From contig WTXG01000096.1 in assembly GCA_022496185.1 (NCBI GenBank), positions 62,001 through 126,000 of the forward strand: DNA of 64,000 bases, read 5' to 3'. Within the stretch, counting starts at the first letter, position 1. Each line of letters opens with the position of its first letter. This document shows, piece by piece, positions 1,516-63,500 of the stretch. Position numbers and translations under genes: made by a program. The stretch comes from Multifurca ochricompacta (Eukaryota > Basidiomycota > Agaricomycetes > Russulales > Russulaceae). Below the pieces are notes generated by a model. The model ran no database searches. It saw only the letters and a list, made by a program, of their open reading frames with translations, and had not been told where the DNA came from.

Positions 1516-2721
1516 CTAGAAACGACTCGTACCATCATCGTCCTGCACCAGATCCAGGTAATCATCAGCTACATTACAATCGTCCATGGTGTAATCTTCC
1601 TTGTCCTCATCCTGGGGACACCTATGGGCGCGAAGGAAGCCATAGGGGCCGCGCTGTCCACACGAGTGACAGAGGTCATGGACAGGGCAGTCCAACTCGC
1701 GATGCCCAGCGTTGTGACACAGGCACTTGCCGCACCAGCTGGACGGATTGATAATTGTCGGGGGAACGCCTATACGGCGGAAAATACAGAACTGGCTCCA
1801 GTGCAGGTTACTGCGGCAGTGGCGACACCACTTGCGGTTGAGGGGACAGTTCCAGCTGATGTGGTACTTACTGTCACACTGCCAACAGGTTTCCCCACGG
1901 GGGTTCTCATGCATCCGCGGCATCTCGAACCGATTGGGTAACAGCCTTGGTGCAGCCCCCAACGATCGTGGGGGGAGGGGTTGTGCATACATGTCAGTGT
2001 ACCTTTCAGCGATGGTCTGGTACGCATCCCCCGTTTCCAACCTCTTTCGGATCTCTACCAGCTCCTGCTTGACCTGGAACATCCCACTGGTCAACCTCGT
2101 CATCATCTTTGCGTGTTCCTTGTACTGCTTATTGAGAGTCGTACGCAGTGTCAGGTTCTTCCGCAGCCTCATTACCTTGGCTTTGAGGCGCAGGAGACGC
2201 ATGTCGTTCAGTACTTCATTGATTGCAAAGGCGCGAGAATCTTCAGCGGCTAAATGTCCTAGCTGCTCATCGCTCATGGTGTGATGCAGTCGTCCTGTGT
2301 AGCGTTCTTCCAAATAGACCGGGGCCCCATAAACGGGACCATTCTTCTTCATACATCCTGCGACATCCATCCCTCCGTTGGTATAAAAGATGTACTTAGC
2401 TATTGCTTTAGTGCCATCCGCCATGGTGATCTCGAGTGGGAAGTACATCGACGAGTTTGGATTGTTGGCGAAGAACGGGAACTCGGGGACATCGTCGTCC
2501 ATTTCCATGCCCACGAGGTCATTGGGATGTGGCTCCTCGCAGTGTTCAAAGTCGTTGTTGGGGTTGGGGGATTGGTTCTTAACGTGTTCTTCCGCAGCTT
2601 CATAGTCGATAGGGGAGGAGGGACGAGTGGAGGGGTGAGCGGAAGGGAAGGCTTCCACAACCACAGTGGTGGCGGTGAAGGCATCAATGGCGGCAGAGGC
2701 AGTGACGAAGGAGGAAGACAT
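1516..2721 (-). CDS. gypsy-A ORF3, zinc-knuckle protein, intact
   Basis: Complete 401-residue ORF between pol and the 3' LTR. I chose the ATG at 2721 because the MSSSF start is shared with gypsy-C and closely matched in B; the open frame extends upstream to 2838. The N-terminal third is Ser/Pro/acidic, followed by a conserved block around residues 75-150 (YFPLEITMADG, then TNGGMDVAGCMKK) and a charged, probably coiled-coil stretch (about 170-250). The C-terminal part holds three clear CCHC knuckles: CX2CX4HX4C at about 279-292 and 299-312, and CX2CX6HX4C at 330-345. A fourth Cys/His cluster is at 351-368. No signal peptide or membrane segment is visible, so it is not an envelope gene. Nucleic-acid binding is inferred from the knuckles. 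I do not recognise the protein. Confidence 0.85.
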   Translation of the reverse strand: MSSSFVTASAAIDAFTATTVVVEAFPSAHPSTRPSSPIDYEAAEEHVKNQSPNPNNDFEHCEEPHPNDLVGMEMDDDVPEFPFFANNPNSSMYFPLEITMADGTKAIAKYIFYTNGGMDVAGCMKKNGPVYGAPVYLEERYTGRLHHTMSDEQLGHLAAEDSRAFAINEVLNDMRLLRLKAKVMRLRKNLTLRTTLNKQYKEHAKMMTRLTSGMFQVKQELVEIRKRLETGDAYQTIAERYTDMYAQPLPPRSLGAAPRLLPNRFEMPRMHENPRGETCWQCDSKYHISWNCPLNRKWCRHCRSNLHWSQFCIFRRIGVPPTIINPSSWCGKCLCHNAGHRELDCPVHDLCHSCGQRGPYGFLRAHRCPQDEDKEDYTMDDCNVADDYLDLVQDDDGTSRF

Positions 2722-8907: not shown

Positions 8908-8909
8908 GA

Positions 8910-9498
8910 TGTTACATCCGGTGCAAGACGTTCTGCACGACTTGTGCGACAGCTTCGTTCGTATGTTCAGATAAGAGATCAATAAGACCTCTTAGAGTGC
9001 AAGTGGATGAGTCAAAGTCAACGGGGCTGTTCCCAAGTGACAATGTTGAGCGGAAAGTGCCAAAAGCACTGAGACGATCGAGTCAGAGGGTTCAAGGGGA
9101 AGTCCAGAAGACAAACACCGATGTATTCAATAAGTTGAGTCTGAGGTCTACATTGTAGTTACAGCGGACTTATATACGTAATTGAATGGGCATCTACGAG
9201 ATAAGAGAACGGAGTCATGTGGGCCCAAATATACGAAAGCGAAGGGCGTAAAGCCTAGCTTCTGATAGGGAACTAAGTAAGTGTCCGGTCGTACGATAAG
9301 GGATAAGAGATAAGGGAAAAGGAGGCACTCATAGACAAAGCGAGGTAAACAGAGACAAAGTCAATCACGGGGAAGGAAGCAAGGCATGTGACGGATCCCA
9401 GGAAGGGGACGTGATCAGGAAATGTAAAGTAGGGGGACAGGTAGGGTCGTTGCTGGGGATCGTGAAGAAAATCGGGTTGCTAGGCAGGGGTCGTAACA
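8910..9498 (-). repeat. gypsy-A 5' LTR
   Basis: 589 bp. On the minus strand a TATATAAG promoter motif precedes the 11-base segment complementary to the PBS. Differences from the 3' LTR are mostly CG versus TG/CA. Confidence 0.93.
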
Positions 9499-11995
9499 CC
9501 TTGGTTATCACCACAGAGGGGAATGGGTCCTAGATCAATGCCAATTTCGCTTAGAAGCGATTTGATCCATACAATCTGTCGCGTTGTGTCAGAAAGCGAC
9601 ATGTATTCTGCTTCAGTGGATGAGAGCGCTGTGGTCTTTTGCGCTCTAGAATTCCAGCTGAATATCCCATTCGCTATTTTCACCATATATCCAGTAGTAG
9701 ATTGGCGATCTATTGGGTTTGATGCCCAATCAGAATCAGCGCACGCGATCAATCCGCCATTTGATCTGCCATTGTAGATAAGCATGTAATCGGATGTGCC
9801 GGCTAAATATCGGCAGATATACAGCACTCGATCAAGATGATCTTGAGATGGATTAGCGGCAAATTGAGATAGCCTTGTAACTGCAAAGGCAATATCTGGT
9901 CGCATGCCCAACATAATGTAAAGTAATGAGCCGATTACTTGTTGGAACTTTGAACGAATGGAAGGATTGGCAGGTTCAGTGTTAGGCTCTGGATGATAGC
10001 CTTCTGGGAGAGGAGTGGGCACAAATTTCGCATTGAGCATCCCAAAGCGTTGCAGCACTTTAGTTAGGTATGGCTGTTGATCAAGTAGAATTTTGCCATC
10101 CTTCCTAGTTATGTGCATTCGCAAGAACTCCTTTGTATCTCCTAGATCCCTGCACTCCCATTTGTTCATAAAGTCAGTTTTTAATTTTCTGACTAGGACT
10201 TCGTCATTCCCCATGAATAACACATCATTGACATATACAATAATGACAACGATTGACCCATTATTAGCCTTATATAGAAATAGGCCTGAGTCTGAGAGTA
10301 GGTGTTTACAGCCCATCGCTGCCATGGATTTATCCAGTGCCTTCCACCATGCTAAGGCAGCTTGTTTAAGACCATAAATGGCGCGTTGTAGTCGTAGCAC
10401 TTTGGTTTCTTGTCCTTTAATTTTGAAACCTTCAGGTTGTTCCATGTATAGCTCTTCATCTAGTTCACCATACAGGAAAGCACTTTTGACGTCTAATCCA
10501 GTGATGTGCCAATCCTCAAGCGCTGCAAGTGCGAGCATCAACTGGACAGTCTCAAACCTTACAACAGGCGAGAATATTTCATTAAAGTCAACGCCTTCAA
10601 CCTGAGAAAAGCCTTTGGCAACAAGCCTAGCTTTCTTATGACCATCAGGTTTTTGGTCAAAGACCCATCTGTTTTTAATTGTCTTCCTCCCTTTGGGAGG
10701 GTCCACAAGTGTAAAGATGTTCTGTCTGCAAAGTGCCTCAAGTTCTTTGTGACAGGCAGTCTTCCATTCCTTTTGTTGCATGTCAGGCATGCGCAAAATA
10801 TCTCTATATGTCCACTCTCGTATATTGGACATGTCTAGTGGCTGTGAATCATGTGGAACTGCTTTGGCGAGCAGATAATTCACAAATTCTCCTCCCCCTT
10901 CCTGGGCTAGTTGAGATACGAGATCTACTAGATCCTCAACTTCATCATCACTCCCCCTTATGGGTGTAAGCGGATCATTGCTAGTGCGGGCCGGAGTGTT
11001 GAGACTAGGACCAGGAACCTGTCTCAGATGCGTGGATGGAATCGGGGAGCTACCCCAAGGTTCCACTGCTCGTCTCCATTGCCGCATCTGCTGAATGTCT
11101 GTAATCTGATCGATGGGGTGCCTGTTATCCCCATAGACATTCCCAGGGCAAAGTGCAACTTTCCTTTCCCATGTAGAGCACCGCAAAGGTGCTGGTTGTT
11201 GTTCTGGCACAGGAGAAGGCAAGGGTACCTCTGGCTGTGAAGCGCTAGGTTCTTTGTCAAGAACCTGAGGTCCTTCTATTTGTTTGGAAGGTGGAAGGTG
11301 AGATGGTAGGAAATCATCATCATCCACTAAAGGAATGGGCTGTGTATCTGGCCCTTCAGTATGTAGAGGCTCATTCAGTTTTGTAACTCCACACCGTCTG
11401 GTGGAATCACACTTAGGGAAGAGATTCTCATCAAAGAGGGCTGTAGCTTGTGTGTATAATTGATTATTGCTAAGCCTCATGAACAGATGGCCTTTAATGC
11501 CATCTGCCTGCCCAATGTACACCATAAGTTCTGACTTAGGTGCTAGTTTATTGCTGCGACGTTCTTCAGGAATGTAGACATACGCACCACATCCAAAGAC
11601 GTGCAAATGAGATATCTCTGGTGCCTCTCCATGTAGTTTTTCATAAGGTGTCTGCCATTTCAGGCGACGTACAGGAGTCCTATTGTAGAGATGCACCGCA
11701 TGCAATACAGCAAATTCCCACCAAGAGTCTGGAAGACATGACTCAATGCGCATCGATTGCACTTTATCCATACAAGTGCACATGAAGCACTCCGCACAGC
11801 CATTTTGTTGGGGAGTATAAGGCATGCTCTGTAGGATTTTTATCCCTTCATCTTTTAGTACATTCATAAATACATCAGACTTGTATTCGCCACCAGCATC
11901 AGACATCCACTCTTTAATGGTGGTGTTATGTTGATTTTTGATCATGGCAAGGAATTGTCGCAAAGCGTTTATTGCAGCAGACTTAGTGCGCAAAC
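9499..11995 (-). pseudogene. copia-3 integrase core, reverse transcriptase, RNase H
   Basis: One open frame of about 830 codons between LTR Z and gypsy-A. It opens with the second half of the integrase core (SDAGGEYKSD, then QQNGCAECFMC, where GRAERFMR is usual). The acidic linker follows, then the copia reverse transcriptase (ARLVAKGFSQVEGVDF, DVKSAFLYGELDEE, IYGLKQA). Its active centre is YVND instead of YVDD. RNase H follows (ADSDWASN, SSTEAEYMS) to DNQG at the insertion point. The Arg-to-Cys changes and the Asp-to-Asn change each fit CpG transitions (CGN to TGN; GTCGAT to GTCAAT). Long and open, but catalytically dead. Confidence 0.93.
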
Positions 11996-13261
11996 TGTTA
12001 CGACCCTACTCTTTTTCCTGACCCTGCACACCATGCCTTATTCTTTGCACCATCCTTGACTTTCCCCTTCTCTGGACCACTCCCTGATGCCCTTGGTATG
12101 CTGCCTTGGGACCTTCTTGATGCCTGTGGCCTGTATGCCCAGGACCTTACCCTGATGCCTGTGACCTGTTGCTCACAGGACCAACCTCCCTTACCACCAT
12201 TTACACCTAACCTGATGGTAGTTCTGCTGCTATACTGTTGGATGTACATCACCCTTCCTTATTGCCTTGGTTTATGCCTTGGCCAGTACCCCTGTCCCTG
12301 TGCTTGACACCCATAGGATCTCTGACACTGTCCCTGCCAAACCTGACTCTGCACACAAGACAACTTTGGCTTGCATTTGCCCCTCCAGACCACATGACCT
12401 GTAGGCACATGACATGGACTCAAAGCCATGACCTATCATGTGACCCTTGACCACATGACCTCAGACCATGTGACCCCCTTTGACCATGTGACCTTGGGCT
12501 TTGATCATGACCCCTTAGATCATCTGACCCATCAGTCACTTGACCCTCTTCTCTGATTCCTGTGGGAGTATTCCCACACTGATCTGACTCCTGTGGGACC
12601 TGTCATTTCCCCATTTACCCCTGACCCTGGTGGGAATCCTCCCACACTGATATGACTCCTGTGGGGCTGTCCCACATGATTATGCTTCTGATAAGGCTTA
12701 TCCTTATCATGGACTATATTTGACATCTTATCTGCTATTGGATGATAAGGACTCTGACCCTGTTCCTGATTAGCTACAAACCAGATCCCCATACAGTATA
12801 TAAGACCCTGTAGACAGTTTGTACAACCCTAGATTTGACCTCTTGGGCCTTCAGCCTAGAGACCTTAGACCCCAGAATCTATCACAGCCTTTTCCCCTTC
12901 TTTTGCGCCTTTGAGATCCTTACAGGGACCCCCATTGCCTCTGGCAATGGGTGTGTACCCTTCCTTTTGAACCTTCTTGCCGCTCTATAGGGCTTCAGCA
13001 CACTCAGCTTGACCCTGTTCCCACTCAACAGCCTTAGGGGATTAGCTCCCTTTGGCTGACTCTTCCTGTCTTCCTCTGTGCTTGGTTATGGCACATTTTC
13101 CTATCCATCCTGGAGCTAAGAGGCTAGCCCTGTTGTGCTAGGCCTGTTGTAGATCCCGGACCCACAGTGTCGGGTGCCGCGGATGTGGCTGACTAGTGCC
13201 GGACTGGTGGACTCAAGCCGATCAGGTGCATGTCGCACAGAACGCCCCGCTGAGCGTTACA
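11996..13261 (+). mobile_element. solo LTR Z, 1266 bp
   Basis: TGTTACGACCC...GAGCGTTACA, flanked by TSD CAAAC (11991-11995 and 13262-13266), within copia-3 integrase. The plus strand has a TATATAAG motif near 12796. A 12370-12560 block is packed with imperfect ACATGACC/ATGTGACC repeats. The terminal sequence of its complementary strand resembles solo LTR W (44677), so both probably belong to one gypsy-like family whose internal part is absent here. Confidence 0.85.
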
Positions 13262-13266
13262 CAAAC

Positions 13267-14536
13267 AGACAATCCACGCAAATGACATATAATCATCAAT
13301 AAAGCTGATAAAATATTTGTATTTATGATAAGATTCTACCGGGAAGATCTTCAGATCTGAATGAATGCGCTCAAATGGCTTTGAGGCACATGTTTCAGAC
13401 AGGAGACAAGATTGCGAAGGCATCTTGCCTTGTGCGCATCCCGGGCATAAGGGAGCTGTCTTTGGATAAGATAGATCTCAGGGGAATCCCTTAGTGTGAT
13501 CTTTAGCATGACGTAAGACTTCCTTTGAAGGATGTCCCAGGCGCTTATGCATTCGATCATAATCTACAGTGTAGATTGTGGAGTAAGATCGTAAATTAGC
13601 GATCTTAGAATGAAGCCAATAGATAGTTTGGCCAGGAATTGCTGGATGGCATTGAATAACAGGGACTTTTGATCCCTTATTGCACAAGGTTAATTGGTGT
13701 TCGTCCCCATAGACGTTCAGCCCTTGCTTAAGAAATTCTCCGACACTCAGGAGTCTCCCAGTAATATCAGGAATGTAATATACTGGATATAAGCGCGTAG
13801 TGCGCGTTCTAGTGACTCCATTGTATGTGACATCGTGTTCTAGTAGAACTGTACCCTTCCCTTTGATATAGATTGGCTTAGAAGCCGTTTTAACGGGCTC
13901 AGGGTTCGCCATGTCCTCATACTCAATGAAATCGTTGAGAGAAAAGGTAAAGTGCAATGAAGCACCTGAATCTAAGAGCCATGTTATATGGCTATCGTCC
14001 GTAGTCTTTCCTTTACATTTAGCACACAGGCAATTATGCCGCAACTCAAATATATTGGTACATGACCTAAAGTCATGTACTGTGCTGTTTACTCCTGCAT
14101 AACAACGGCTCTCAATGGGGGGTTCCCTAGAAGCGCGAACTAAAGAAGCATAAATGCATCTATGAGCTTTGCAGGGTAGAAGGAAAGGAGGGACGTACAC
14201 ATCTTGATCGTCGTCCTCATCTAGACCAGCCAGATCAGCCAACTGATCATCAAGATGATCAGAACCCCAGTCCAGAGGATTATTGGGGTCCTCCTCCTCG
14301 TCTTCTGAATCAACGTCGATAGGTGAGGGGGATCTGGTTTTCTTGCAGGGCGGCTCATCTCCATCCTCTTCAAGGTCCTCCAGTTTGGTCTTACTGGACG
14401 ATGCTCTTGAGAATTGGTCAGTGATGCGGGCCTCAAGTGGTTTAATGTTACAAGAGGTCCCTGGCACACCTATATCATCGCATAGATCCAAGGCTTGGTT
14501 AAACACTTGATAGCGGCCAGGGATCTGCTCCTTAGG
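13267..14536 (-). pseudogene. copia-3 protease and integrase N-terminal part
   Basis: Continues copia-3 between gypsy-B and LTR Z. An acidic segment (EEDPNNPLDWGSD) is followed by the protease site WLLDSGASLHF, the GAG-pre-integrase region, and the integrase finger (MHKRLGHPSKEVLRHAKDH, then CPGCAQGK). A TGA after TKGFP (about 13479) again replaces an expected arginine. The frame resumes with HSDLKIFPVES and FISFIDDYMSFAWIVCL, the first catalytic aspartate region, up to the Z insertion. Reading joins 11995 in frame after one CAAAC copy is removed. Confidence 0.9.
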
Positions 14537-15116
14537 TGTTACGAACCCCATCCTTGCCTGTATTCTTTTTCCTACCTAACGACAACCCTTCCCTGCCGCC
14601 TACTCTCCACTACCAGATCACGTCTCCATCGTGGGACCCGTCACATGCTCTTCGCCCGTCCCCGTGACTTACTTGTTTATATGTCTTTGGTTGCCCTTAT
14701 CTCTGCTTATCGCTTATCTTCTTATCATACGACCGGACACTTACTTAATTCCCTATCAGTGGAAGCCAGGCTCTACGCCCTCCGTTTCCGGCTATTTGGG
14801 CCCACTTGACTCCGTAGTTCTTATCTTTAGACGCTCATTCGATTACGTATATAAGTCTGCTGTAGCTACGATGTAGACCTCAGACTCGACTTATTGAATA
14901 CATCGGTGTTTGTCTTCTGGACTTCCCCTTGGAACCTTTGAACTCGACTGTCTCAGTGCTTTTGGCACCTTCCGCTCAACATCGTTACTAGGGAACAGCC
15001 CCTTTAACGTTGACTCACCCATTCGAACTCCAAGAGGTCCTATTGACCTCTTATCTGAATAACACGAACGAAGCTGTCGCACAAGTTGTGCAGAACGTCT
15101 CACACCGGACGTAACA
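14537..15116 (+). repeat. gypsy-B 5' LTR
   Basis: 580 bp, TGTTACGAACC...CGGACGTAACA. TATATAAG is at 14848-14855 and the PBS-complementary segment AGACTCGACTT at 14882-14892, 34 bases from the TATA start, where transcription would be expected to begin. Confidence 0.95.
14848..14892 (+). promoter_or_regulatory. gypsy-B TATA box and predicted mRNA 5' end
   Basis: TATATAAG at 14848-14855 and AGACTCGACTT at 14882-14892. The spacing fits a pol II start at or near the first base of the 11-mer, as needed if the mRNA 5' end folds back as primer. The start site is inferred, not seen. Confidence 0.5.
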
Positions 15117-15118
15117 TC

Positions 15119-15129
15119 AAGTTGAGTCT
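15119..15129 (+). other. self-priming PBS of gypsy-B
   Basis: AAGTTGAGTCT, two bases after the LTR. It pairs along its whole length with the LTR segment AGACTCGACTT (14882-14892), with one G-U wobble. Confidence 0.78.
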
Positions 15130-15135
15130 CTCACA

Positions 15136-16642
15136 GTGGCTTCCAGCTGCAGTCAGACCCTCTTCCGGGAAGAACTCATCGAACGCAGAGACGAGCATAA
15201 TCTTTCACAGCAAGTACTTGGCTCTGCCACCTGGAAAGACTTTGAGTCCGAGTTTGGATACTATGTCTATCACGACGGAAGATACCAACCGGTAGAATAC
15301 GACGACGAAAAGAGAGTTTGGTATCGTATCCGATATTCGGACAGCCGACACTCTTGGGTCACTACAGGACCCGCCCCACCTGAATTTGGATTAGGGCCGT
15401 GGAGGGAGAATCCCCCGGCCATCGTTACGGACTCTGAACCAGAAGAGTACGTAGAAGAACATAGTGAAGAAGCACTGGTATTAGCATTGACTACAACCCC
15501 AGTTGCACCCGCAGTTGTCACGTCCAGAGCCCCTGCTTTGACAACTCCCCAGATTTCAATACAGTCCACTGACACCGTCACCCCACTTTACCAAACATGT
15601 CTACTATCGCTGCCCAACTCCCAGACCCAGCACCGGCACCCCCGCCAGCCACGCTCCCACCCAATATTCCCCCACCATCAGGACGGTTATCGGGAGTACT
15701 ACCCCAAACATTCACCGGGGAACGGTCACAAAGCAAAAATTTATGCTGGAGTTCACGACCTTTAAAAACTTCAACCATGACGTCCCCCAGATCATTAACC
15801 CCTTCCAACGTGCAAACCTCTTCCTCTCTCTGATCCGAGGGGAGGCTGTGGATGATTGGACCATGGAACAGCTGGAATGGCTGAACGAGCAAGTTGAAAG
15901 TGGCCGTCGTACCACTAGTGAAGGGCTTTGGGAAACCATCGCCCAGCGATTTAAAGATGCATTTACGGATGGGCAGGCCAAGCAGAAGGCTGCTCGAGAA
16001 CTTAAGTCCCTCAGGATGGAGAAAGGAGAGCTTGATGCTTATGTAGCCAAGTTCAGAAGCTTAGCCAACAGGGCCGGCTACGACACCGATGAAGAGGCCA
16101 CATTGGACCTCTTCTCCCAGGGGTTGCCCAACCCACTGGTGAAAAATATTATCCAGTTCCACCACCCTAATGACTGGGACACGTGGGTTGACGCTGCTCG
16201 ACGACAGCAGCAGGACTATTTGGACTTCCAGACATGCTTTGGAGTCGACACGAAGAAGGGAAAAACCCGTGACCAGTGGAAGGCCGCTTTCGGAGTTAAA
16301 CCCACACACGCCAGTCAGAGGGATCCAAACGCCATGGATACCTCAGCCGACAGAACAAGAGCACGGGTGGCCCTTACGGAAGATGAAAGGCAGACCCTGA
16401 TGAAGGAAGGACGGTGCTTTCGCTGCAAGACACAAGGGCACATGTCTAGGGAGTGCCCAAAGAAAGGGGTACGGGCCGCGGAAGCAACTGTCACACCGAT
16501 CCATAACAACCCACCAACTGTCAATAAAAAGTCAACGACGAAAGAAGAAAAGGCGCAGGAAATATGGGCAAATATGATGAAGGAGAGTGAAGAAGTGCGA
16601 GCTATCTTGGTAGAAAAAGCATTCGCAAAAAAGGATTTTTAA
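15136..16642 (+). pseudogene. gypsy-B gag (two frameshifts)
   Basis: ATG at 15136 (MASSCSQTLFREEL), 6 bases after the PBS. Compared with A and C, one base is lost before ATGTCTACT near 15591 and one A in an A run near 15738, so three frames cover the protein. The capsid-like region (FNHDVPQIINPFQRANLF, then LNEQVESGRRTTSEGLWE) is followed by the knuckle CFRCKTQGHMSRECPKKG. At the codon where A and C have TGA, this copy has AGA (Arg). Gag ends with KKDF and TAA inside the T5-plus-stop junction. The role is capsid formation and RNA packaging, by homology to Retrotrans_gag. Confidence 0.92.
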
Positions 16643-19600
16643 TTGGCTCAAACCCTTCGGCCTGGGCACGAGCACTACATGTAACCTCTGTGTATACTAG
16701 TCGCTTCAAATCTTTGAAAATACCAGTACATTTCGAAACTACACAGAGGACGGCCGATCGCGACATCCTGATCGACTCAGGAGCTACGACAACTTCATCA
16801 GCCCGTGAATGGTGAAGACCATGGGATTAGGGATGCTGGCACTTCCCCAGGAAAAAAATATCTGGAATATTGACGGAACCGCCAACTGGGCTGGAAAAAT
16901 CACACATTATACCGACCTCAACGTCCAAGTAGGAGAAAGGACAAAAGTCATATGCTTCCTAGTCACTAACCTAGGCGGAGAAGATTTGGTCTTGGGATAT
17001 CCCTGGCTTGCCGCATTCGAACCAAAGATTAACTGGGGCGATGCGACAATGGATAAGGACTATTACCCTGTGCTCATCACGTCAATAGGGTACGATTACA
17101 CAGTCCGACATTCCTTGGCATACAAGGCAGAAGTAAACAAGGAAGACTCGGGATATTGTTTCACCACCAAAGCATCAGAACTCGCGCAGAAAGCAGTAGA
17201 AGGACATGCAGAAAAAACATTTGAAGAAGTGGTGCCAGCGGAATACCATCGACACTGGAAAGTGTTCTCGGAGGAGGAATCGCAACGTTTTCCCCCTGTA
17301 CGACCATGGGACCATGCCATTGACTTCATACCCGATACCCCGTCAGCAATTGATTGTAAAATCTACCCATTGTCACAGGCAGAACAGACCGCGCTCACGG
17401 CATTCCTCGAGGAACATCTTGCAAAGGGATATATCCGTCCATCGAAATCACCCTACGCATCGCCATTCTTCTTCATTAAAAAGAAAGACGGCAAACTTCG
17501 ACCTGTTCAGGATTACCGACGGATAAACGCCCACACTGTAAAGAATGCCTACCCCTTGCCACTCATCTCCGAACTTATTGACACCATGAGGGATAAATCT
17601 TTGTTTTCCAAAATGGACGTCCGTTGGGGTTACAATAACATTCGGATCAAAGAAGGGGATCAGTGTAAAGCGGCTTTTAAAACCAATCAGGGACTCTTTG
17701 AACCGAACGTTATGTTCTTCGGCCTCACTAACTCCCCTGCCACCTTCCAATCGATGATGAACCACATATTCCGTGACCTCATTCTTACCGGCGAAGTAGT
17801 GGTTTACATGGATGACATACTGGTGGCCACTGAAAACGATCTGACCCATCACCGAGAGCGAGTACACCAGGTGTTAGAGATCCTACACGAACATGACTTA
17901 TACCTCAAGCCCGCCAAGTGCTCATTCGAACAGTCAAGTGTGGAATACCTGGGAGTCATATTAGAGGGAGGACAGGTCTGAATGGACCCCGTAAAGGTGC
18001 AAGGAATCCGGGAATGGCCAGTGCCTGCATGTGTCAAGGACATGCGATCTTTCATCGGGTTCTGTAATTTCTATCGACATTTTGTCCGAGGTTTCTCAGG
18101 AATCGCTCAACCACTAAACGGATTACTGAAGAAAGATGTTCCCTGGCATTGGACAGAAGAACATCAAATGGCTTTTGAACAAATTCGCGACATTATTGGT
18201 TCAGAACCGGTTCTGTTACAACCAGATTTGCAGAAACCCTTTGAACTTGAGGTTGATGCATCCCATTTTGCAAATGGCACCGTATTAAATCAGCGGGATA
18301 CGGCGGGACTCCTTCACCCGGTGGCCTTTTACTCAGAGACATTCTCGCCGGCGGAACGGAATTATGACATTTGGGACAGGGAATTACTGGCTATTGTGAA
18401 AGCATTGCGACATTGGCGACCATATCTAGCGGGAACTCCTCACAAGACTATTATTCACACCGATCACTCCAATCTACTGTATTGGAAGGAACCCCACAAG
18501 ATCAGTCGACGAGTTGCTCGCGAAGTCTTAGAATTGGAAGAATACAACTTCGTACTTAAACACATTGCAGGAAGTCGCAACGCACGAGCAGACGCACTGT
18601 CACGACGGCCGGACTTGAACGATGGCGGGGAGGATAACACTAATATCACAGTGCTCCCCGAAGAGGTCTTTGCAAAGACGGCGGTTGTCAGTCTTCATGA
18701 TATGGATCTATGGGCCCAAGTGTCCCAAAATATGAATCAGCAGTTATGCAAAGCATGGGCCGATGCACACAACCTGAAAAAGATTGACGGCCTGTGGTGG
18801 AAGGACGGGGATCGACTCGTTGTCACCGGTGGCGACAACATTAAGAGGGGGGTGATCCATTTTCACCATGACCTCCCCTCTGCAGGACATCCTGGCATCG
18901 CCAACACTTACGCTCTTGCCAAACGCGACTACTGGTGGCCAAACATGAAAAGGGATGTGGAGGAATATGTGAAGGGATGCGCAGACTGCCAGGCCAACAA
19001 AGTGAACACGCACCCGCAACTACCGGCACCATTCCCAATTATGCCGACAGCCTCACAACCATTCCAGACCATTGCCATGGATTTCATCGTCAAGCTCCCC
19101 ATTTCCAGAGGTTTTGACACAGTCCTGACCATCACCGATCACGACTGTTCAAAAGCGGCACTGTTTATACCCTGCAAAGAGTCTATCACAGCAGAAGGAG
19201 TGGCCAAACTTTATCTGGATCACGTCTACAGACACTATGGCCTCCCTGAAAAGATCATCTCAGACCGCGACCCACGCTTCACGTCAGCGTTTGCTAGAGT
19301 GCTCTGTAAAACGCTGAATATCGCTCAGAACATCTCTACAGCGTATCACCCACAGACAGATGGACAGTCGGAAAGGACAAACCAGTGGCTCGAACAGTAT
19401 CTTCGATTTTGGTGCAACGGACGACAGGATGATTGGGCGGACTGGCTAGCGACAGCAGAGTTTGCCCACAATTCTTGGCCCAATGGTACTACGAAACACT
19501 CCCCATTCTCGCTTATCATGGGATGGACACCCCGAGCCACATGGACAGGAAAGCCGACGAATGTCCCTTCGGCTACACAACGTATCGACCAATGGGAAGA

Positions 19601-20120
19601 GATTAGGAAATCAGCCAATGAAAACCTGTTGAAGGCGCAAAGGACCCTGGCTGAGAAGTCCACAAGGTTCACACCTTATCGAACCAATGACCTGGTATGG
19701 TTAGAAGGGAAGAACATCCACACGTCACACCCGACCGCCAAGTTAGCGCCCCGACGTCACGGACCCTTCAAGATAACAAGGAAGCTGTCAGATGTGTCAT
19801 ACCAACTTGAGCTCCCCCCCACATGGCGCATTCACCCAGTCTTCCATGCCAGACTGCTTACACCCTACAAGGAGACACCGCTGCATGGAGAAAACTTCTC
19901 GAGACCCCCACCTGACCTTATCGAGGGAGAAGAAGAGTGGGAAGTGGAACGCATTCTAGATTCCAAGCGACAAGGCCGAGGGCGCAAACTGTATTACCTG
20001 ATTAAGTGGAAGGGATTCCCAGCCTCTGACAATTCATGGGAACCAGCCGGCGATATCTCTGCCCCGGTCCTTATCTCGGAGTTCCATGTCCGACATCCAG
20101 AAGCACCCAGGAATAGTTAA
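16638..20120 (+). pseudogene. gypsy-B pol: protease, RT, RNase H, integrase, chromodomain
   Basis: Nearly intact pol in the -1 frame relative to gag. The protease DSGAT site is followed by a lost base (near 16793). RT has [28 protein letters not shown] and an intact YMDDILVAT. A TGA at 17979-17981 lies between GGQV and MDP, where gypsy-C has Cys and CGA is the likely ancestor. From 17982 a 712-codon frame carries RNase H (LEVDASHFANG, YDIWDRELLAIVKAL, HTDHSNLLYW), the integrase finger (HFHHDLPSAGHPG, then CADCQANK), the catalytic core (AMDFIVKLP, ISDRDPRFT, DGQSERTNQW) and a chromodomain (EWEVERILDSKRQ, YYLIKWKGFP, SWEPAGDIS). It ends 83 bases before ORF3. Confidence 0.95.
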
Positions 20121-20203
20121 AAGGAAGCAATCTCAACCCCTAGACGATTTCCCCCCAGTATATGCCCTCCCAGCAAATTACTACCACTACCGAACTATCA
20201 ATC

Positions 20204-21397
20204 ATGTCTTTCATCACTGCCTCCGCTGCCATCGACGCCTTCGCCTCCCCAATGACCGTCGTCGAAAACTTCCCTTCCGCTCACCCCTCCTCTCGTCCCT
20301 CTTCTCCCATCGACTACGACGCTGCCGAGGCCCATGTCAAAAATCAATCCCCTAACCCGAACAATGACTTCACCCATTGTGAAGAGCCCCACCCCAACGA
20401 CCTACTCAACGGGGAGATTGATGATGAAGCCCCAGAGTTCCCCTTTATCCCCAATAACCCTAACTCGTCAATGTATTTCCCCCTAGAAATCACAATGGCA
20501 GATGGTTCCAAGGCCATTGCGAAGTATATCTACTACACCAACGGGGGGATGGACGTGGCGGGATGTATGAAGAAGGATGGGCCGGTTTATGGAGCCCTGG
20601 TCTATTTGGAGGAAAGGTATACAGGACGACTTCACCATACGATGACTGACGAACAACTGGGCCACCTTGCGGCGGAGGACTGTCGTGCCTTCGCGATCGA
20701 CGAGGTAATGAACGACATGAGGTTGCCACGCCTCAAGGCGGAAGTCATGAGGCTGCGGAAGAATATCACCCTACGGAGGACGTTGAACCAGCAGTACAAG
20801 GAGCACGCGAAGATGATGGCTAGGCTGACGAATGGAATGTTCCAGTTGGAACAGGAGATTGTGGACATTAGGAAGAGGTTGGAGGCGGGAGATGCGTATC
20901 AGACGATCGCTGAAAGGTACACTGACACCTATGCACGGCCTCTCCCTCCTCGTACACTTGGAGCCGCCCCGACACTGCTACCAAGCCGGCTCGAGATGCC
21001 ACGGTTGCATGAGAATCCGCGCGGGGAAACCTGCTGGCGTTGTGATAGCAAGTATCACATCAGTTGGAACTGCCCTCTCAACTGCAAATGGTGCCGACAT
21101 TGCCGCAGCAATCTTCATTGGAGCCGGCACTGCATCTTTCGACGTGTAGGGGTGGCCCCAACAATCAACAATCCGTCAGGCTGGTGTGGCAAATGCCTTC
21201 GTCACAACGCCGGGCATAAAGAAATTGACTGCCCCGTCTACGACCTGTGCCGCGCCTGTGGTCAGCGTGGCCCGTACGGCTTCCTTCGCACCCATGCATG
21301 CCCACAGGAAATGGAGACGTACCGAATGGACGATTGTAATGTAGCTGATGACTACCTAGAGCTGGTGCAGGATGATGATGGTACGAGTCGTTTCTAG
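20204..21397 (+). CDS. gypsy-B ORF3, zinc-knuckle protein, intact
   Basis: 397 residues; the ATG at 20204 (MSFITASAAIDAF) is chosen by alignment with A and C. It ends 31 bases before the 3' LTR, leaving room only for the polypurine tract. Layout as in gypsy-A: Ser/Pro-rich start, conserved MYFPLEITMADG and YIYYTNGGMDVAGCM, a charged helical stretch, then CWRCDSKYHISWNC, CRHCRSNLHWSRHC, CGKCLRHNAGHKEIDC and CRACGQRGPYGFLRTHAC. It lies in a different frame from pol, so it needs its own initiation or a separate mRNA. Function unknown; RNA or DNA binding is inferred from the knuckles. Confidence 0.87.
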   Translation: MSFITASAAIDAFASPMTVVENFPSAHPSSRPSSPIDYDAAEAHVKNQSPNPNNDFTHCEEPHPNDLLNGEIDDEAPEFPFIPNNPNSSMYFPLEITMADGSKAIAKYIYYTNGGMDVAGCMKKDGPVYGALVYLEERYTGRLHHTMTDEQLGHLAAEDCRAFAIDEVMNDMRLPRLKAEVMRLRKNITLRRTLNQQYKEHAKMMARLTNGMFQLEQEIVDIRKRLEAGDAYQTIAERYTDTYARPLPPRTLGAAPTLLPSRLEMPRLHENPRGETCWRCDSKYHISWNCPLNCKWCRHCRSNLHWSRHCIFRRVGVAPTINNPSGWCGKCLRHNAGHKEIDCPVYDLCRACGQRGPYGFLRTHACPQEMETYRMDDCNVADDYLELVQDDDGTSRF

Positions 21398-21428: not shown

Positions 21429-22008
21429 TGTTACGAACCCCATCCTTGCCCGTATTCTTTTTCCTACCTAACGACAACCCTTCCCTGCCGCCTACTCTCC
21501 ACTACCAGATCACGTCTCCATCGTGGGACCCATCACATGCTCTTCGCCCGTCCCCGTGACTTACTTGTTTATATGTCTTTGGTTGCCCTTATCTCTGCTT
21601 ATCGCTTATCTTCTTATCATACGACCGGACACTTACTTAATTCCCTATCAGTGGAAGCCAGGCTCTACGCCCTCCATTTCCGGCTATTTGGGCCCACTTG
21701 ACTCCGTAGTTCTTATCTTTAGACGCTCATTCGATTACGTATATAAGTCTGCTGTAGCTACGATGTAGACCTCAGACTCGACTTATTGAATACATCGGTG
21801 TTTGTCTTCTGGACTTCCCCTTGGAACCTTTGAACTCGACTGTCTCAGTGCTTTTGGCACCTTCCGCTCAACATCGTTACTAGGGAACAGCCCCTTTAAC
21901 GTTGACTCACCCATTCGAACTCCAAGAGGTCCTATTGACCTCTTATCTGAATAACACGAATGAAGCTGTCGCACAAGTTGTGCAGAATGTCTCACACCGG
22001 ACGTAACA
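21429..22008 (+). repeat. gypsy-B 3' LTR
   Basis: 580 bp; five CpG-type differences from the 5' LTR. Preceded by the polypurine tract AGAAGAGGGGGTGA (ends 21428). Confidence 0.95.
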
Positions 22009-22013
22009 TTAGG

Positions 22014-22941
22014 TGTGGTATGCATCACGATGCGAGGCCTTCCGTTCCTGTAATGAGATTTAAACGCAGGAGGTGAGGGAATGGATGGCATGGTCATGAG
22101 ATGAGGAGGAGGGAAGAACGCCTGATTGGCGATGTGAGAATGCTGCTGTCCCTTGGACTGCTGATTATCTCTGTACTTCTTCCCAGCACAGCGCCTGCAC
22201 TGGAATTTCTGATCTGACTGTTTCTCCGCTTGCTCCGGCTGCTTGCCACCGAAGTGTTTCATGCTGATTAAAGCAAGGGTCACCCCGCTTCCATTTGATT
22301 GCCGAGAGCTTATTAGCTGCATGAGGGTTCTTACCCCTGGATCGATCTTGCTCCCACTGAGCAAGCACGGCATCATGGATTACGGCTAGATTAATGTTGG
22401 AAGGAGATCTTCTGACAAGGATGGTGGGGATAAGGGCCTCCCATTTGGGAGGGAGCGTATGGAGCAGGAGCATGCCCTGCAAGACATCAGGGATGGTGAC
22501 ACTATTGGTCTCAAGGCACTCAAAGGCGACCTCAAGGTGGTTAATCTGAGGCAAGGGGTGCTTGGCAGAGTCCAGGCGAAAGTTTAGGGCTTCTTTGAAG
22601 TCCCTAAAGATTGCAGCGGGCCCCACTGAGCCATACTTGCTCTTTAGACTGATCCATATAAGGAAGGAAGAGCCAGTTGAGGTATGTTCGTGCTGGATCA
22701 CAGTGGACAGCCTCAAGATTATAGTGCCGATCGCCTTGTTATCAGCGCGGTCCCATTCCTTCTGAAGTAATTTTTCATCTTCAGTAGGGTTCTGTTCATC
22801 CTTGGCATTAGGACGAGGGTCGGAGCCATTCGTGACCTCCCAAAGCCCACTAGACATAAGGAAAGCCCTCATCACATTGGCCCAAGCGGAATAGTTAGAT
22901 CTGTCAAAGACGGGAACGGCAATTGTCAGTTGAGACGACAT
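22014..22941 (-). pseudogene. copia-3 gag
   Basis: Starts at ATG 22941 (MSSQLTIAVPVFDRSNYSAW), the typical N-terminus of copia Gag (DUF4219/UBN2 type). It continues through LSTVIQHEHTSTGSSFLIW, LDSAKHPLPQINHLEVAFE and LLHTLPPKWEALIPTIL. A frameshift near 22250 moves the reading to a basic segment with CRRCAGKK, a remnant of the RNA-binding knuckle. It reaches the gypsy-B insertion site at VMHTT and continues at 14536 (KEQIPGRYQVFN). Role: coat protein and RNA packaging of the copia particle. Confidence 0.88.
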
Positions 22942-27629: not shown

Positions 27630-27858
27630 TGCACCATCATCATCCTGTACCAGGTCCAAGTAGTCATCTACTACATTACAATCATCCAAGGTGTGGTCAT
27701 TCTTGATCAGGCATTGGTGGGTGCAGAGGAAACCATAAGGGCCACAGCAGCCACACTGGTCACACATGTCATAGACAGGGCAATTGATCTCCTGATGCCC
27801 AGCATTGTGGGTGAGGCACTTGCCACACCATGCTGATGGATTGATGATGGAGGGTAGG
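27630..27858 (-). pseudogene. gypsy-E ORF3 fragment (zinc-knuckle end)
   Basis: About 75 codons open on the minus strand: INPSAWCGKCLTHNAGHQEINC, then CDQCGCCGPYGFLCTHQC, ending DDYLDLVQDDDGA where the G3 LTR interrupts it. This matches the last two knuckles and the acidic tail of ORF3 in gypsy-A to -D. It is all that remains in the window of an older gypsy element, cut on the right by hAT-A at 27859. Arg-to-Cys and Arg-to-Gln type replacements fit CpG decay. Confidence 0.85.
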
Positions 27859-32218: not shown

Positions 32219-32431
32219 TGATGGATTGCAATCCATTGATGAGCAGGAGGAGCGCAAAAGTGCACCACACTTGTCTATGATTCTAGCTTCAGGCTAGAAT
32301 GACTAATTTTTGGAGTGCCCCTCAGGGGCAATGAACTTCTTATTCATCCTGTTGAAATAAATCTTTCATATGATTTTACAGACTATGGCCTCTTGTCTTG
32401 ATTATTCTATGTTGCTGATTCAAGCATGACC

Positions 32432-54830: not shown

Positions 54831-56024
54831 ATGTCTTCTTCCTTCATTGCCGCCTCTGCTGCCATTGACGCCTTCACTGCCACTACTGTGGTCGTGGAAG
54901 CTTTCCCCTCCGCTCATCCCTCTACTCATCCCTCCTCTCCCATCAACTACGACGCTGCTGAAGAACGCGTTAAGAACCAGTCACCCAATCCAAACGACGA
55001 CTTCACCCACTCCAAAGAACCCCATCCAAACGACCTCCTCGGCATGGAACAAGATGATGAAGTACCTGAGTTTCCATTCTTCGCCAACAATCCAAACTCC
55101 TCCATGTACTTTCCACTCAAGATCACAATGGCTGATGGAACAAAGGAAATAGCTAAGTACATATTCTACACCAATGGAGGAATGGATGTCGCAGGCTGTA
55201 TGAAGAAGGACGGGCCCGTTTATGGAGCCCCGGTTTATTTGGAAGAGCGGTACACAGGTCGCCTTCACCACACGATGAGTGACGAACAACTGGGACATCT
55301 TGCGGCTGACGACCCCCGAGCCTTTGCAATCAATGAGGTGTTAAACGACATGTGACTCCCGCGTCTTAAAGCCGAAGTAATGAGACTGCGGAAGACCCTT
55401 ACACTCCGCACCACACTCAACACCCAGTACAAGGAGTATGCGAAGCAAATGACAAGGCTCACAAGAGGCATGTTCCAAGTTGAGCAGGAATTGACGGAGA
55501 TTCGAAAGAGGTTGGAGATAGGGGATGCATATCAGACCATTGCAGAGAGGTACACTGACACATACGCCTGACCCCTTCCCCCACGATCGTTAGGAGCAGC
55601 ACCACAACTGCTGCCGAACTGGTTCGAGATGCCATGGATGCATGAGAATCCCCGAGGAGAAACTTGCTGGCGATGCGATAGCAAGTACCATATTAGTTGG
55701 AACTGCCCCCTCAATCGCAAGTGGTGTCGTCATTGCCGAAGCAACCTCCACTGGAGCAGGTTCTGCATCTTTCGACGACTGGGAGTCGCTCCCACCATTG
55801 TCAACCCTTCGGGATGGTGTGGGAAGTGTCTGCAACATAACGCGGGACATCGCAAGCTCGACTGTCCAGTGTACAATTTGTGCCGTCAGTGCGGACGGCG
55901 CAGCCCATACGGTTTCCTACGCACACACCAGTGCGCGACAGATGAAACTTACACTGTGGAGGATCGAAATCTGGCAGATGATTATGTGGACTTGGTACAG
56001 GATGATGATGGTGCGCATTTCTAG
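54831..56024 (+). pseudogene. gypsy-C ORF3, zinc-knuckle protein with two TGA
   Basis: Single frame of 397 codons from MSSSFIAASAAIDAFTATTVV. Two TGA codons (55353-55355 and 55569-55571) stand where gypsy-B has arginine; at the second, gypsy-A has CAA, so an ancestral CGA decayed on different strands. Conserved blocks MYFPLKITMADG and YIFYTNGGMDVAGCMKK and all four Cys/His clusters (CWRCDSKYHISWNC, CRHCRSNLHWSRFC, CGKCLQHNAGHRKLDC, CRQCGRRSPYGFLRTHQC) are kept. Apart from CpG damage the protein is intact. Ends about 30 bases before the 3' LTR. Confidence 0.88.
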
Positions 56025-59312: not shown

Positions 59313-60503
59313 CTAGATCAGCATACCATCATCATCCTGAACCAAGGAGAGGTAGTTGTCTGCTACGGTGTAGTGGTCAGCGTCATAGTTCTCCTTGTCT
59401 TTGTCCATAGGGCAAACATGTGTTTGTAGAAAACCATAGGGCCCTCTCCTCCCACATCAAAAGCAACCATTGTAAACATGACAGTCGATTTCTCGGTGAC
59501 CTGCATTATGGGTAAGGCACTTGCCACACCATCCAGACAGGTTGGTGATGTTGGGGGCCTGCATAAGCCATCGGAACAGACACTGATGGCTCCAGTGCAA
59601 GGTGCTTTGGCAGTGCCGACATTGTTTCTTGGTGGTAGGGCAGCACCAACTAAGGTGATACTTGCTGTTGCAGCACCAGCAAAGCTTACCATCTGGATTT
59701 TCATGAAGGTGTGGCATTTCAAGGCAACTTGGATTGAGTCAGGGCGCAAGGTCGAGGCAGCAATGGGGGAGGGGTCAGGCAAAAATGTTGGCATACCATT
59801 CAGATATAATTTGATACACCTCCCCTAACTCCAATCATGTCCTAATGCTCGCCAGGTGCTGCTCTATGTCAAGGACCCCTCAGTTGATCCTCACCATCTG
59901 TTGTTCATAGTCATGGTGCTGCATCTCTAGATTGTCTCAGAGTGCCTGGAACTTATGCAGCTGTGCGACCTTGGCAGTTAGTCGCAGCATGCACAAATCC
60001 TGGAGCACCTTGTTGATGGCAAAAGCATGGGGGTTGCTGGCTGACAAGTGTTGGAGATGTTCTGGCCCTAGGACATAATGGAGTTGATCGACTTTCTTCT
60101 CCTCTAAGTACACTGGAGCTTCATAGACTGGCCCCCCCTTTTCCAAACACCTGGCTACATCCATACCTTTGTTGGTGTAGTAAATATACTTGGCCACTTC
60201 AGTTGTACCGTTGTTTCTGGGTGTCAGAATCATGAGTGGGAAGTAAAATTGAGATCCAGGGTTGTTTGGGAAAAACAGAAACTCAGGGGCCTCATTGCCA
60301 AAGTCAACATCAATCAGGTCATTTGGGTGGGGGTGCTCGGGCAGACTAAAATCTTCATTGATATTGGTGGCTCTGATCCCTTTGGCCACTTTGGTGGCAG
60401 CATTGTAGTCAATAGGAGATAGTGGGCAAGAAGGAGGATGCAAAGGAGAAAGTAGGGGAAATGCATCAATGGTGGCTGAGGTGTGAATGCTGGAGGGAGA
60501 CAT
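59313..60503 (-). pseudogene. gypsy-D ORF3, zinc-knuckle protein, decayed
   Basis: From MSPSSIHTSATIDAF (ATG 60503). N-terminal part open to about 59937: SPIDYNAATKVAKG, HPHPNDLIDVDFG, then TTEVAKYIYYTNKGMDVARCLEKGGPVY. Then stops and a shift, followed by the knuckle block CWCCNSKYHLSWCC, CRHCQSTLHWSHQC, CGKCLTHNAGHREIDC, GRRGPYGFLQTHVC and the acidic tail SLVQDDDG with TAG at 59313. All Cys/His ligands of knuckles 1-3 are kept despite heavy divergence elsewhere, evidence of constraint while the family was active. Upstream, the frame is continuous with the end of pol. Confidence 0.85.
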
Positions 60504-63500
60504 GGACTTTGTTCTGGGTTGCTGTGGGGAGGGAAGTTGTCCAATTGAACATATAGCCATCTGCTCTTTATCTGCCTCAGGATGGCATCTATAGAAGTCT
60601 TTGATAAGCTTGGGTGCAAAGACATCTGCAGCAGGTTCCCACAAGTTATCAACATCAGGGAATCCCTTCCATTTGATCAGATAGTGGAGTTGGTGTTTGT
60701 GCCCTTGGCCTTTCCATTTTGCATCAGCGATACGTTCTACCTCCCACTCTGGTTCTCCATCAACTAATTCAGGAGGGGGTTGTGGGAAATTCTGGCCATG
60801 AATGGGGGTTTCTTTGTATGGTGTGAGAAGACTGGCATGGAAGACAGGGTGAATCTTCCATGTGGATGGCAGTGTCAGCTTGTATGTAATATCTGACAGC
60901 TTCTGTTCGATTGTGAATGGGCCATGGCATCTAGGAGCTAGTTTCGCTGTTGGGTGAGAGGTGTGGATGTTGTGTCCTTCTAGCCAGACTTGATCTCTGA
61001 CTTGATAGGGTGTAAACTTTGTGGGCTTCTCAGCCAGGGTCCTTTGTGCCTTCTGAAGATTCCTGTTGGCTGATTCTCATATCTCTTCCCATTGGCCAAT
61101 ACACTGTGTTACAGATGGCACATTGGTGGGTTTGTCTGTCCAAGTAGTGTGGGGGTTCCATCCCATAATAAGGGAGAAGGGGGAGATTTTTGTTGTCCTG
61201 TTTGGCCAGCTGTTATGTGTGAACTTGGCTGTCGCCAACCATTCTGCCCAGTCATCCTGTTGCTCGTTACACCAGAAGTGGAGATACTGCTCTAACCACT
61301 GGTTCATTCATTCTGATTGACCATCTGCCTGTGGGTGGTATGCTGTAGAAATATTTTGCTGGATATCAAGGTGTTTGCAAAGGGCCCAGGTGAACATAGA
61401 TGCGAATCGCAGGTCTCGGTCAGAAATGATTTTCTGGGGGAGTCCATAGTGCCAATATACATGATTCAGGTAAAGCTTGGTGACTCCTTCAGCAGATATC
61501 GTCTCATTGCAGGGGATGAAGAGAGTGGCCTTTGAGCAATCATGGTCCATGATAGTGAGTATTGAGTCATATCCTTGTGACTGTGGCAGCTTGACAATAA
61601 AGTCCATGGCGATAATTTGAAAGGGAGCTGTTGCGATTGGCGTGATGGGTGAAAGTGCCAGTGGTCTTGGGTGCATGTTTACTTTATTTGCCTGACACTC
61701 CATGCATCCCTTGACATATGCTTCTACATCCTTCTTCATGTTCAGCCACCAGTAGTCATGTTTAGCAAGAGCATATGTATTCGCAATGCCAGGGTGTCCT
61801 GCAGAGGGGAGGTCATGGTGAAAATGAATCACCCCCCTCTTAATGTTGTCACCACCGGTGACAACCAGCCTGTCTTCATCTTTCCACCAAAGACCATTCT
61901 TCATCTTCAAATTGTGGGGTTCCACCCAGGATCTGCACAATTCCTGGTTCATATTCTGTGTCACTTGGGCCCACAAGTCCATGTCATGAAGGCTGACAAC
62001 TGCTGTTTTTGTGAAGACCTCCTCCAGTAAGACTACAATATTGTCATTGTCATTCTCTCCTTCATCACTACCGGTTGGTCTGGACAGGGCGTCTGCACAT
62101 GCATTATGAGCTCCAGGGAGGTGTTTGAGCATGAAGTTGTATTCTTCAAGCTCCAAAACTTTGTGTGCCACTTGTCAACTAATTTTATGGGGTTCTTGCC
62201 AGTAAAGGAGGTTGGAGTGGTCCATATAGATAATAGTTTTATGCAGAGATCCAGCCAGATATGGTTGCCAGTGTCATAATGCCTTCACAATAGCCAATAG
62301 TTCTCTGTCCCATATATCATAGTTTCTTTCTGCTGATGAAAAGGTTTCTGAATAGAATGCAACAGGGTGGAGAATTCCTGTATGGTCATGTTGTGAAAGG
62401 ATGGCCCCATTGGCATACATGGAGGCATCGACTTCAAGTTTGAATGGCTTTTCTAGGTCAGGCTGGATAAGGATGGGTTCTGAGCTAATGATCACTTTTA
62501 TCTGGTTGAAAGCCTCCTGTTGTGGTGCATTCCAGTGCCAAGGTATGTCCTTCTTCAATAGATCGTTGAGTGGTCGGGCTATGGCAGAGAATCCTTTGAC
62601 AAATCATCAATAGAAGTTGCAAAAACCAATGAATGATCAGACATCCTTGGTACACTGGGGGGTAGACCATTCCTGAATTCCTTGTACTTTTACAGGGTCC
62701 ATGCATACCTGCCCTCCTTCCAGGATGACACCTAGATATTCGATGCTAGTCTGCTTGAAGGAACACTTGGTGGGCTTCAGGTAAAGGTTGTGTTTCATCA
62801 GGATGTCGAGTACTTCATGAACTCTGGCTCAGTGATGGTTGATGTCATTTCCTGTGGCCACCAATATATCATCCATATATATGACTACCTCCTCCATAAG
62901 GATCAGATCTTGGAAGATGTGGTTCATCATCGACTGAAAGGTTGCTGGTGAATTGTCAGGCCAAAAACATGACATTGGGTTCAAAAAGTCCTTGATTGGT
63001 CTTGAAGGCAGCTTTGGGTTGGTCACCTTCACAGATACAAATGTTGTTGTAACCCCAGCAAATGTCCATTTTCGAGAATAAGGCCTTGTCACACATTTTG
63101 TCAATAATTTCAGAGATCAGGGGAGGGGGTAGTTGTTTTTCACCATGAGTTCATTAATCCATCTGTAGTCCTGTACCAGTTGTAACTTTCCATCCTTCTT
63201 TTGATGAAGAAGAAAGGCGAAGTGTAGGGAGAGTTTGATGGTTGGATATACCCTTTAGCCAAATGTTCTTCCAAGAAGGTCAAAAGTGCCTCCTTCTTGG
63301 GCTGAGACAGTGGATAGATTTTACAGTCAACTGCCTGTGGGGCGTTCAGGATGAAGTCAATGGTGTGATCCCATGGCTGAGAAGGGGGAAAGCATTGTGA
63401 CTCTTCTTCTGAGAAGACTTTTCGATGCCAATGATATTCTTTGGGGACCACCTCTTTGAATGTCTTTTCTGGATTTTTCTGTGCCTCTGCCTGAGCCAGC

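What the first reader, a model, noticed from the sequence alone, without database searches (positions are those of the whole stretch)
20204..21397. A third gene in a chromovirus clan: a four-knuckle protein between pol and the 3' LTR
Gypsy-A, -B, -C and -D and the gypsy-E fragment all carry an ORF of about 400 codons filling the space between pol and the polypurine tract (1516-2721, 20204-21397, 54831-56024, 59313-60503, 27630-27858). It is open in A and B, has only two CpG-type TGA in C, and keeps its Cys/His ligands in the old D and E copies. The end holds three CCHC knuckles plus a Cys/His cluster, while Gag already supplies one CCHC knuckle. It occupies the env position but shows no signal peptide or membrane segment. 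It could be a second nucleocapsid, an RNA chaperone, an anti-silencing or a targeting factor. I do not recognise it from described Ty3/gypsy elements.
Basis: partly seen in the sequence, partly recalled or inferred. Interest (0 to 1): 0.86.

Follow-up and report, generated by a model that had tools for sequence, protein, structure and literature searches.

The report
Extra gene in a fungal retrotransposon
A large family of mobile elements in this probably fungal genome carries a conserved third protein, built of a small barrel, a long coil and four zinc-finger-like modules, which in one branch is a separate gene and in a sister branch is read on from the polymerase; a similar core ends the polymerases of a number of related elements, so it looks like a real working part whose job is still unknown.

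Summary
ORF3 lies between pol and the 3' LTR of chromoviruses A, B and C; D and E are decayed relatives. It is under strong purifying selection (dN/dS about 0.03-0.08 within clans; pol 0.07). It lay behind pol in 18 of 18 pol copies fetched because no ORF3 had been listed for them, 8 of these full length in one frame. All 16 Cys/His ligands are invariant in 17 of 17 aligned intact proteins.

(1) ORF3 is not always a third gene. In the D clan it continues in frame from pol (75 of 79 pairs in phase). In the B clan (A, B, C) it follows a pol stop, in any phase (22, 13 and 10 of 45). Its own AUG is kept in both clans. (2) It is not unique. Its barrel-plus-coil core is homologous to C-terminal tails of other chromovirus Pols (34 of the 120 listed relatives), and one of these has three of the four zinc modules.

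Most likely it is a self-associating, nucleic-acid-binding accessory protein working with Pol or integrase in the particle. That function is inferred. Nine paper searches showed only 'additional ORF with unknown function' in a figure legend.

The parts
20162..21397 (+). ORF3 of element B (397 aa from AUG 20204; 411 aa from the in-frame AUG 20162), separate from pol
20444..20932 (+). ORF3 residues 81-243: small beta barrel, two short helices and a long coil helix; the part shared with Pol tails of other chromoviruses
   Evidence: models (core model mean pLDDT 90.3); homology
21032..21073 (+). knuckle 1, C277-x2-C-x4-H-x4-C290
   Evidence: invariant in 17 of 17 rows
21092..21133 (+). knuckle 2, C297-x2-C-x4-H-x4-C310
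   Evidence: invariant in 17 of 17 rows
21185..21232 (+). knuckle 3, C328-x2-C-x6-H-x4-C343; also in P0008, P0026 and P0072
   Evidence: relatives read by eye
21248..21301 (+). Cys/His cluster 4, C349-x2-C-x11-H-x-C366; also in P0008 and P0026
   Evidence: relatives read by eye
21308..21394 (+). acidic C-terminal tail (net charge -8)
16591..20120 (+). pol of element B (protease to chromodomain); broken by a frame change near 16810 and an in-frame stop just before 17982
15743..16642 (+). gag of element B, capsid and one CCHC knuckle; the Gag AUG lies upstream in another frame
14537..15117 (+). 5' LTR of element B
21429..22009 (+). 3' LTR of element B, preceded by a purine-rich tract
1516..2721 (-). 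ORF3 of element A, open, own AUG at 2721
54831..56024 (+). ORF3 of element C, two internal TGA
59313..60503 (-). ORF3 of element D, six internal TGA, fused in frame behind pol
59940..61076 (-). one frame without a stop in D: integrase end, chromodomain, linker, ORF3 residues 1-188
27630..27858 (-). ORF3 fragment of element E (knuckles 3 and 4, acidic tail)

Best explanation
ORF3 is a conserved accessory protein of a chromodomain Ty3/gypsy lineage. SHOWN: it is selected as protein; it has a less conserved acidic N-terminus, a core modelled as a small barrel plus long coil, four zinc-finger-like Cys/His modules in a basic stretch and an acidic tail; its core is homologous to C-terminal Pol tails of other chromoviruses; its own AUG is kept whether the frame is fused to pol (D clan) or cut off by a stop (B clan). 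INFERRED: it associates with itself through the coil, binds element RNA or cDNA with the knuckles, and acts with Pol and integrase inside the particle or the pre-integration complex as a second nucleocapsid or chaperone beside the single Gag knuckle. In fused lineages it would travel in the Pol polyprotein; in the B clan it would be made from its own start codon (route unknown), free of the Pol dosage.
For: Selection: pooled dN/dS 0.033 among 8 loci picked by pol; 0.039 B-B, 0.080 D-D, against pol 0.074 and 0.067. Core and knuckles are the tightest parts (B-B pN/pS 0.095 and 0.088, against 0.173 and 0.203 for the two ends). 16 ligands invariant in 17 of 17 intact rows. Fusion: 75 of 79 D pairs in phase, 72 with the same gap, against 22 of 45 in B (Fisher p 4.5e-9). 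Own AUG: 41 of 41 D loci, while linker codons -19 to 0 have a median residue conservation of 0.46; 31 of 31 B loci within 3 codons; all 18 pol-picked copies align from ORF3 residue 1. Homology: the ORF3 profile finds P0008 at E 2.4e-27 among 120 proteins; a profile of 26 other tails finds ORF3 of B at 38 bits, best of 300 shuffled sequences 3.8; hhalign probability 95, E 3e-8, five column shuffles 0.1. Knuckle stretch net +9 in B; long helix of 54 residues. PDB sequences nearest to the knuckles are Lin-28 and retroviral nucleocapsids, all above E 0.05.
Confidence: 0.5

Rival explanations
1. ORF3 is an anti-silencing factor: a free protein that binds RNA or a silencing protein of the host and shields the element.
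For: Own AUG and separate cistron in the B clan; zinc-finger-like modules and coil; element DNA shows transition-type decay, as in silenced repeats (12 of 12, 5 of 5 and 15 of 16 LTR differences are transitions).
Against: In-frame fusion to pol in the D clan and in relatives would tie a suppressor to Pol dosage and to the particle. No Pfam match to ORF3 better than E 0.014 in any of 17 members, none a known suppressor.
Confidence: 0.2
2. ORF3 steers integration: barrel and knuckles read chromatin or a host protein and extend the chromodomain's targeting.
Against: The fold matches are far below significance (Foldseek E above 1 in the PDB). In the B clan it is cut off from integrase.
Confidence: 0.2
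3. ORF3 is an env-like protein.
For: Position between pol and the 3' LTR; the N-terminus is mildly hydrophobic.
Against: No hydrophobic segment of usual membrane strength; homologous to Pol tails; zinc-finger-like modules.
Confidence: 0.02
4. ORF3 arose by duplication of the Gag nucleocapsid.
For: Short knuckle-to-knuckle similarities (blastp E 0.002 to 0.65).
Against: Outside the CCHC motif only short stretches aligned, at E 0.019 or worse; the core matches Pol tails instead.
Confidence: 0.05

Closest known systems
C-terminal Pol tails of other chromoviruses (unnamed proteins, such as P0008, P0072, P0109)
   Same: same place behind the chromodomain; homologous barrel-plus-coil core in 34 of 120 listed relatives; 29 of 34 have a Met followed by S, T or N in the first 100 tail residues (shuffles mean 9.8, largest 20; many rows are near-identical)
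   Different: those listed are fused to pol (the search could not show separate ORFs); most have no knuckles; P0008 has knuckles 1, 3 and 4, P0026 has 3 and 4 without the core, P0072 has the core and a partial array
[quoted passage not shown] section 5 and passages read, figure not held)
   Same: extra ORF in elements of a fungal chromovirus survey
   Different: neither sequence, domain nor position is given in the text read, so identity with ORF3 cannot be judged
Accessory ORF3s of bdelloid rotifer LTR retrotransposons (PMC5408684, passages read)
   Same: non-env accessory proteins in the third-ORF position
   Different: DEDDy, GDSL or env-like there; the words zinc and CCHC do not occur in its main text; other host group
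Retroviral nucleocapsid and Lin-28 double knuckles
   Same: two CX2CX4HX4C modules close together (recalled for the named proteins)
   Different: similarity only at E 0.065-0.93; ORF3 has four modules and a coil, and is not part of Gag

Membership tests
[quoted passage not shown]
   (integrase zinc-binding, SH3 and chromodomain above cut-off; integrase core 29.1 bits, just below its 32.6)
Ty3/gypsy chromovirus (the element) | paired LTRs and short target-site duplication | tested here: met
   LTR pairs; 4-base repeats at the flanks of A, B and C read by eye
Chromovirus Pol C-terminal tail family | homologous core behind the chromodomain | tested here: met
Chromovirus Pol C-terminal tail family | reading frame continuous with pol | tested here: inconclusive
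   met in the D clan (75 of 79 pairs), not in the B clan (any phase, pol stop before it)
Nucleocapsid | CCHC zinc knuckles in a basic stretch | tested here: met
   sequence pattern and charge; zinc itself not tested; Pfam zf-CCHC does not reach E 1 in ORF3 of B
Nucleocapsid | part of or derived from Gag | tested here: not met
   blastp only, outside the knuckle motif
Nucleocapsid | binds genomic RNA in the particle | not testable with these tools
   needs experiment
Retroviral or errantiviral Env | membrane segment or signal peptide | tested here: not met
   hydropathy; no dedicated signal-peptide program was available
Tudor or SH3-like barrel | significant fold match | tested here: inconclusive

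The most novel reading that the evidence does not exclude
Chromoviruses carry a widespread, undescribed third gene with a conserved start codon of its own, which moves between two states over evolution: overlapping the end of pol in frame (so that one stretch gives both a Pol fusion and a free protein) and standing alone. In this lineage it became a four-knuckle nucleic-acid-binding protein, in effect a second nucleocapsid made outside Gag.
Probability: 0.45. Interest if true: 0.78.

Novelty: new variant of a known kind. Interest (0 to 1): 0.62.

Why it matters
Fungal chromoviruses are usually drawn as gag-pol. A conserved extra protein with its own start codon, in more than a hundred copies of one genome and traceable as a Pol tail in a good share of the listed relatives, means that part of their coding capacity has been overlooked. 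The paired clans, fused and split, both in one genome, make a testable question of why an element would free a protein from Pol dosage, and what a second zinc-knuckle protein does that Gag does not.

Tried and rejected
Direct searches with ORF3 alone in 5.8 billion proteins (B; fused D ORF3 part) gave nothing at E<=1e-3. The control with the pol part gave 5295 proteins among the 7994 candidates scored (120 listed), so relatives are held; the two ORF3 searches missed even P0008, which shows the limit of their sensitivity (and one search excludes proteins of its length). The homologues came from reading the tails of those 120. The viral-contig scan with the ORF3 alignment found no relative. Pfam, PDB by sequence, Foldseek and VIA-align: no significant match for ORF3. 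Rfam: none in the window at gathering scores. An ad hoc DNA pattern in the window matched no more often than chance.

Programmed frameshift or read-through as the expression route of B-clan ORF3: rejected, as its phase to pol varies freely. Gag duplication: not supported. Low dN/dS as an artefact of picking by ORF3 similarity: checked with 8 loci picked by pol. dS is near saturation in many comparisons, so the ratios are rough, those between clans (0.12-0.13) above all.

Rows left out: one search used the 45 loci with both ORF3 (coverage at least 0.95; 59 loci) and pol (at least 0.85; 52 loci). One search used 8 of the 18 pol-picked loci, those with full-length unshifted ORF3, which favours intact copies. 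One search used 103 of 104 pol and 88 of 104 ORF3 rows (ORF3 rows not starting at residue 1 dropped; 11 of those start at residue 2) and paired 45. One search used the D ORF3 rows that start at residue 1 and left 25 of 104 pol rows unpaired; these were not looked at further, though some have ORF3 rows that begin later. The D loci were found with a query that starts at that Met, so 41 of 41 is favoured by how they were found, by my count, 4 rows start at residue 2 to 5 against 133 at residue 1. L001 and L021 are the window's own B and D; one search counts B twice, too; leave the doubles out.

Full report
What was checked. No host name is given; that it is a fungus rests on the kind of elements, not on a call. 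The five ORF3 places of the finding are real. A and B are open; C has two internal TGA; D has six; E keeps the last part. The elements are chromoviruses by Pfam, with paired LTRs and 4-base flanking repeats (read by eye). The gag and pol frames of A, B and C overlap by about 50 bases with pol in the -1 frame. B has broken gag and pol but an open ORF3.

Copies in the genome. A search with ORF3 of B scored 104 copies, a lower bound; 68 have no internal stop by my count. A search with the open N-terminal piece of D scored 150. To avoid choosing by ORF3, a stretch of B integrase was searched (104 rows) and 18 copies without a listed ORF3 were fetched: all 18 have ORF3 behind pol, aligned from its first residue; 8 are full length in a single frame, 10 are in pieces or cut by a contig end.

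Selection. With Nei-Gojobori counts, dN/dS of ORF3 is 0.039 (276 B-B pairs), 0.080 (210 D-D pairs) and 0.12-0.13 between clans, where dS is saturated; for the pol stretch of the same loci it is 0.074, 0.067 and about 0.07. For the 8 pol-picked loci it is 0.033. By region (B-B), core and knuckles are most constrained (pN/pS 0.095 and 0.088), then the coil 0.112, linker 0.160, N-terminus 0.173, acidic tail 0.203.

Fused or separate. In the D clan no stop need be crossed between chromodomain and ORF3. L051 has one open frame of 889 codons from integrase to the ORF3 end, and the window's own D shows the same over 379 codons. Pairing D-pol and D-ORF3 rows gives 79 pairs out of 104 pol rows, 72 with the identical gap and 75 in phase. 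In the B clan, 20 of 22 distinct loci have a pol stop 77-86 bases before the ORF3 start; the other two have shifted pol frames there. 45 pairs fall into the three phases 22, 13 and 10; Fisher p 4.5e-9 for in-phase D against B. So B-clan ORF3 cannot depend on read-through or a fixed frameshift, while D-clan ORF3 can be read with Pol. The linker in D has an in-frame stop in 1 of 32 rows but no clear amino-acid constraint.

Its own start codon. In 41 D loci the AUG is present in 41. In the twenty linker codons before it the commonest residue holds in 0.24 to 0.88 of rows (median 0.46); the AUG holds in 1.00 and the next residue in 0.98, while later N-terminal positions range from 0.39 to 1.00. 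The loci were found with a query starting at the AUG, so this is favoured. In 31 of 31 B loci an AUG lies within three codons of the ORF3 start. Many also have one 39 or 42 bases upstream in frame, but A, C and several related copies do not, and in C and some of those a stop lies between. In the tails of relatives a Met followed by S, T or N occurs within 100 residues in 29 of 34 core-bearing tails (shuffle mean 9.8, largest 20) and in 50 of 65 tails of at least 150 residues (mean 20.4, largest 33), though many of those sequences are close kin. The simplest reading is that the start codon is old and used, also where the frame is continuous with pol; this is inference.

Relatives. ORF3 itself finds nothing in the protein collection. 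The pol part finds 5295 proteins among 7994 scored, 120 listed. Of 118 that reach the chromodomain end, 63 have at least 150 further residues and 41 at least 300. A profile of 17 ORF3 proteins, run against these 120 only, hits P0008 (E 2.4e-27), P0026 (8e-11, knuckles 3 and 4) and P0072 (1.7e-5), and others weakly, many over the same stretch. A profile of 26 other tails hits ORF3 of B at 38 bits and of the D clan at 25-29, against 3.8 for the best of 300 shuffled sequences, and 34 of the 120 relatives at E<1e-5 in a set of 430, 26 of these being the rows it was built from; those rows had been chosen after earlier hits, and the tails for hhalign by a motif resembling ORF3. The alignment runs through barrel and coil, with one extra heptad in ORF3 and P0008. 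So ORF3 belongs to a family of Pol tails; the zinc array is present in few of those listed.

Mechanism. Coil plus knuckles plus basic charge suggest a self-associating nucleic-acid binder; fusion behind integrase in the D clan suggests a place in the particle or the pre-integration complex. A chaperone or second-nucleocapsid role is the best bet (0.5), with anti-silencing and targeting at about 0.2 each. Nothing here shows expression.

Literature. Nine full-text searches of open-licence PMC papers were made (listings seen). Read: section 5 and passages of PMC2864245, passages of PMC3248453, PMC2774666 and PMC5408684. [quoted passage not shown] the figure is not held. No description of this protein was found by these searches; repeat libraries were not available.

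Noticed in passing
15115-15510 (B), 49746-50141 (C), 8516-8911 minus (A): A stretch right behind the 5' LTR, upstream of the Gag AUG and without an AUG at its start, is conserved as protein in A, B and C (pN/pS 0.13-0.30 in that frame, 0.8-2.9 in the other two; A has one stop in it). In C it runs in frame into Gag. Gag may start at a non-AUG codon or after a splice.
   Followed up: partly
9480-14551 (minus), 22165-22941 (minus), 31036-34876 (minus), 41458-44055 (minus): Copia-type pieces (RVT_2, SH3_retrovirus, Pol_BBD, gag_2) surround the gypsy elements, plus a further chromovirus integrase at 31036-32091.
   Followed up: no
LTR pairs of A, B, C: 32 of 33 differences between paired LTRs are transitions, which suggests methylation- or RIP-like decay.
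   Followed up: no
genome G000: B-clan copies differ strongly at synonymous sites (mean dS above 1 in ORF3 and pol), while LTR pairs in the window are 97-99% alike, so several old lineages seem to have moved recently side by side.
   Followed up: no
P0078, P0085, P0109, P0119, P0122 (proteins): These related Pol tails stop at the same place, right after the coil (...ERGRLP), where ORF3 goes on to its knuckles; whether a separate knuckle ORF follows there could not be looked at.
   Followed up: no
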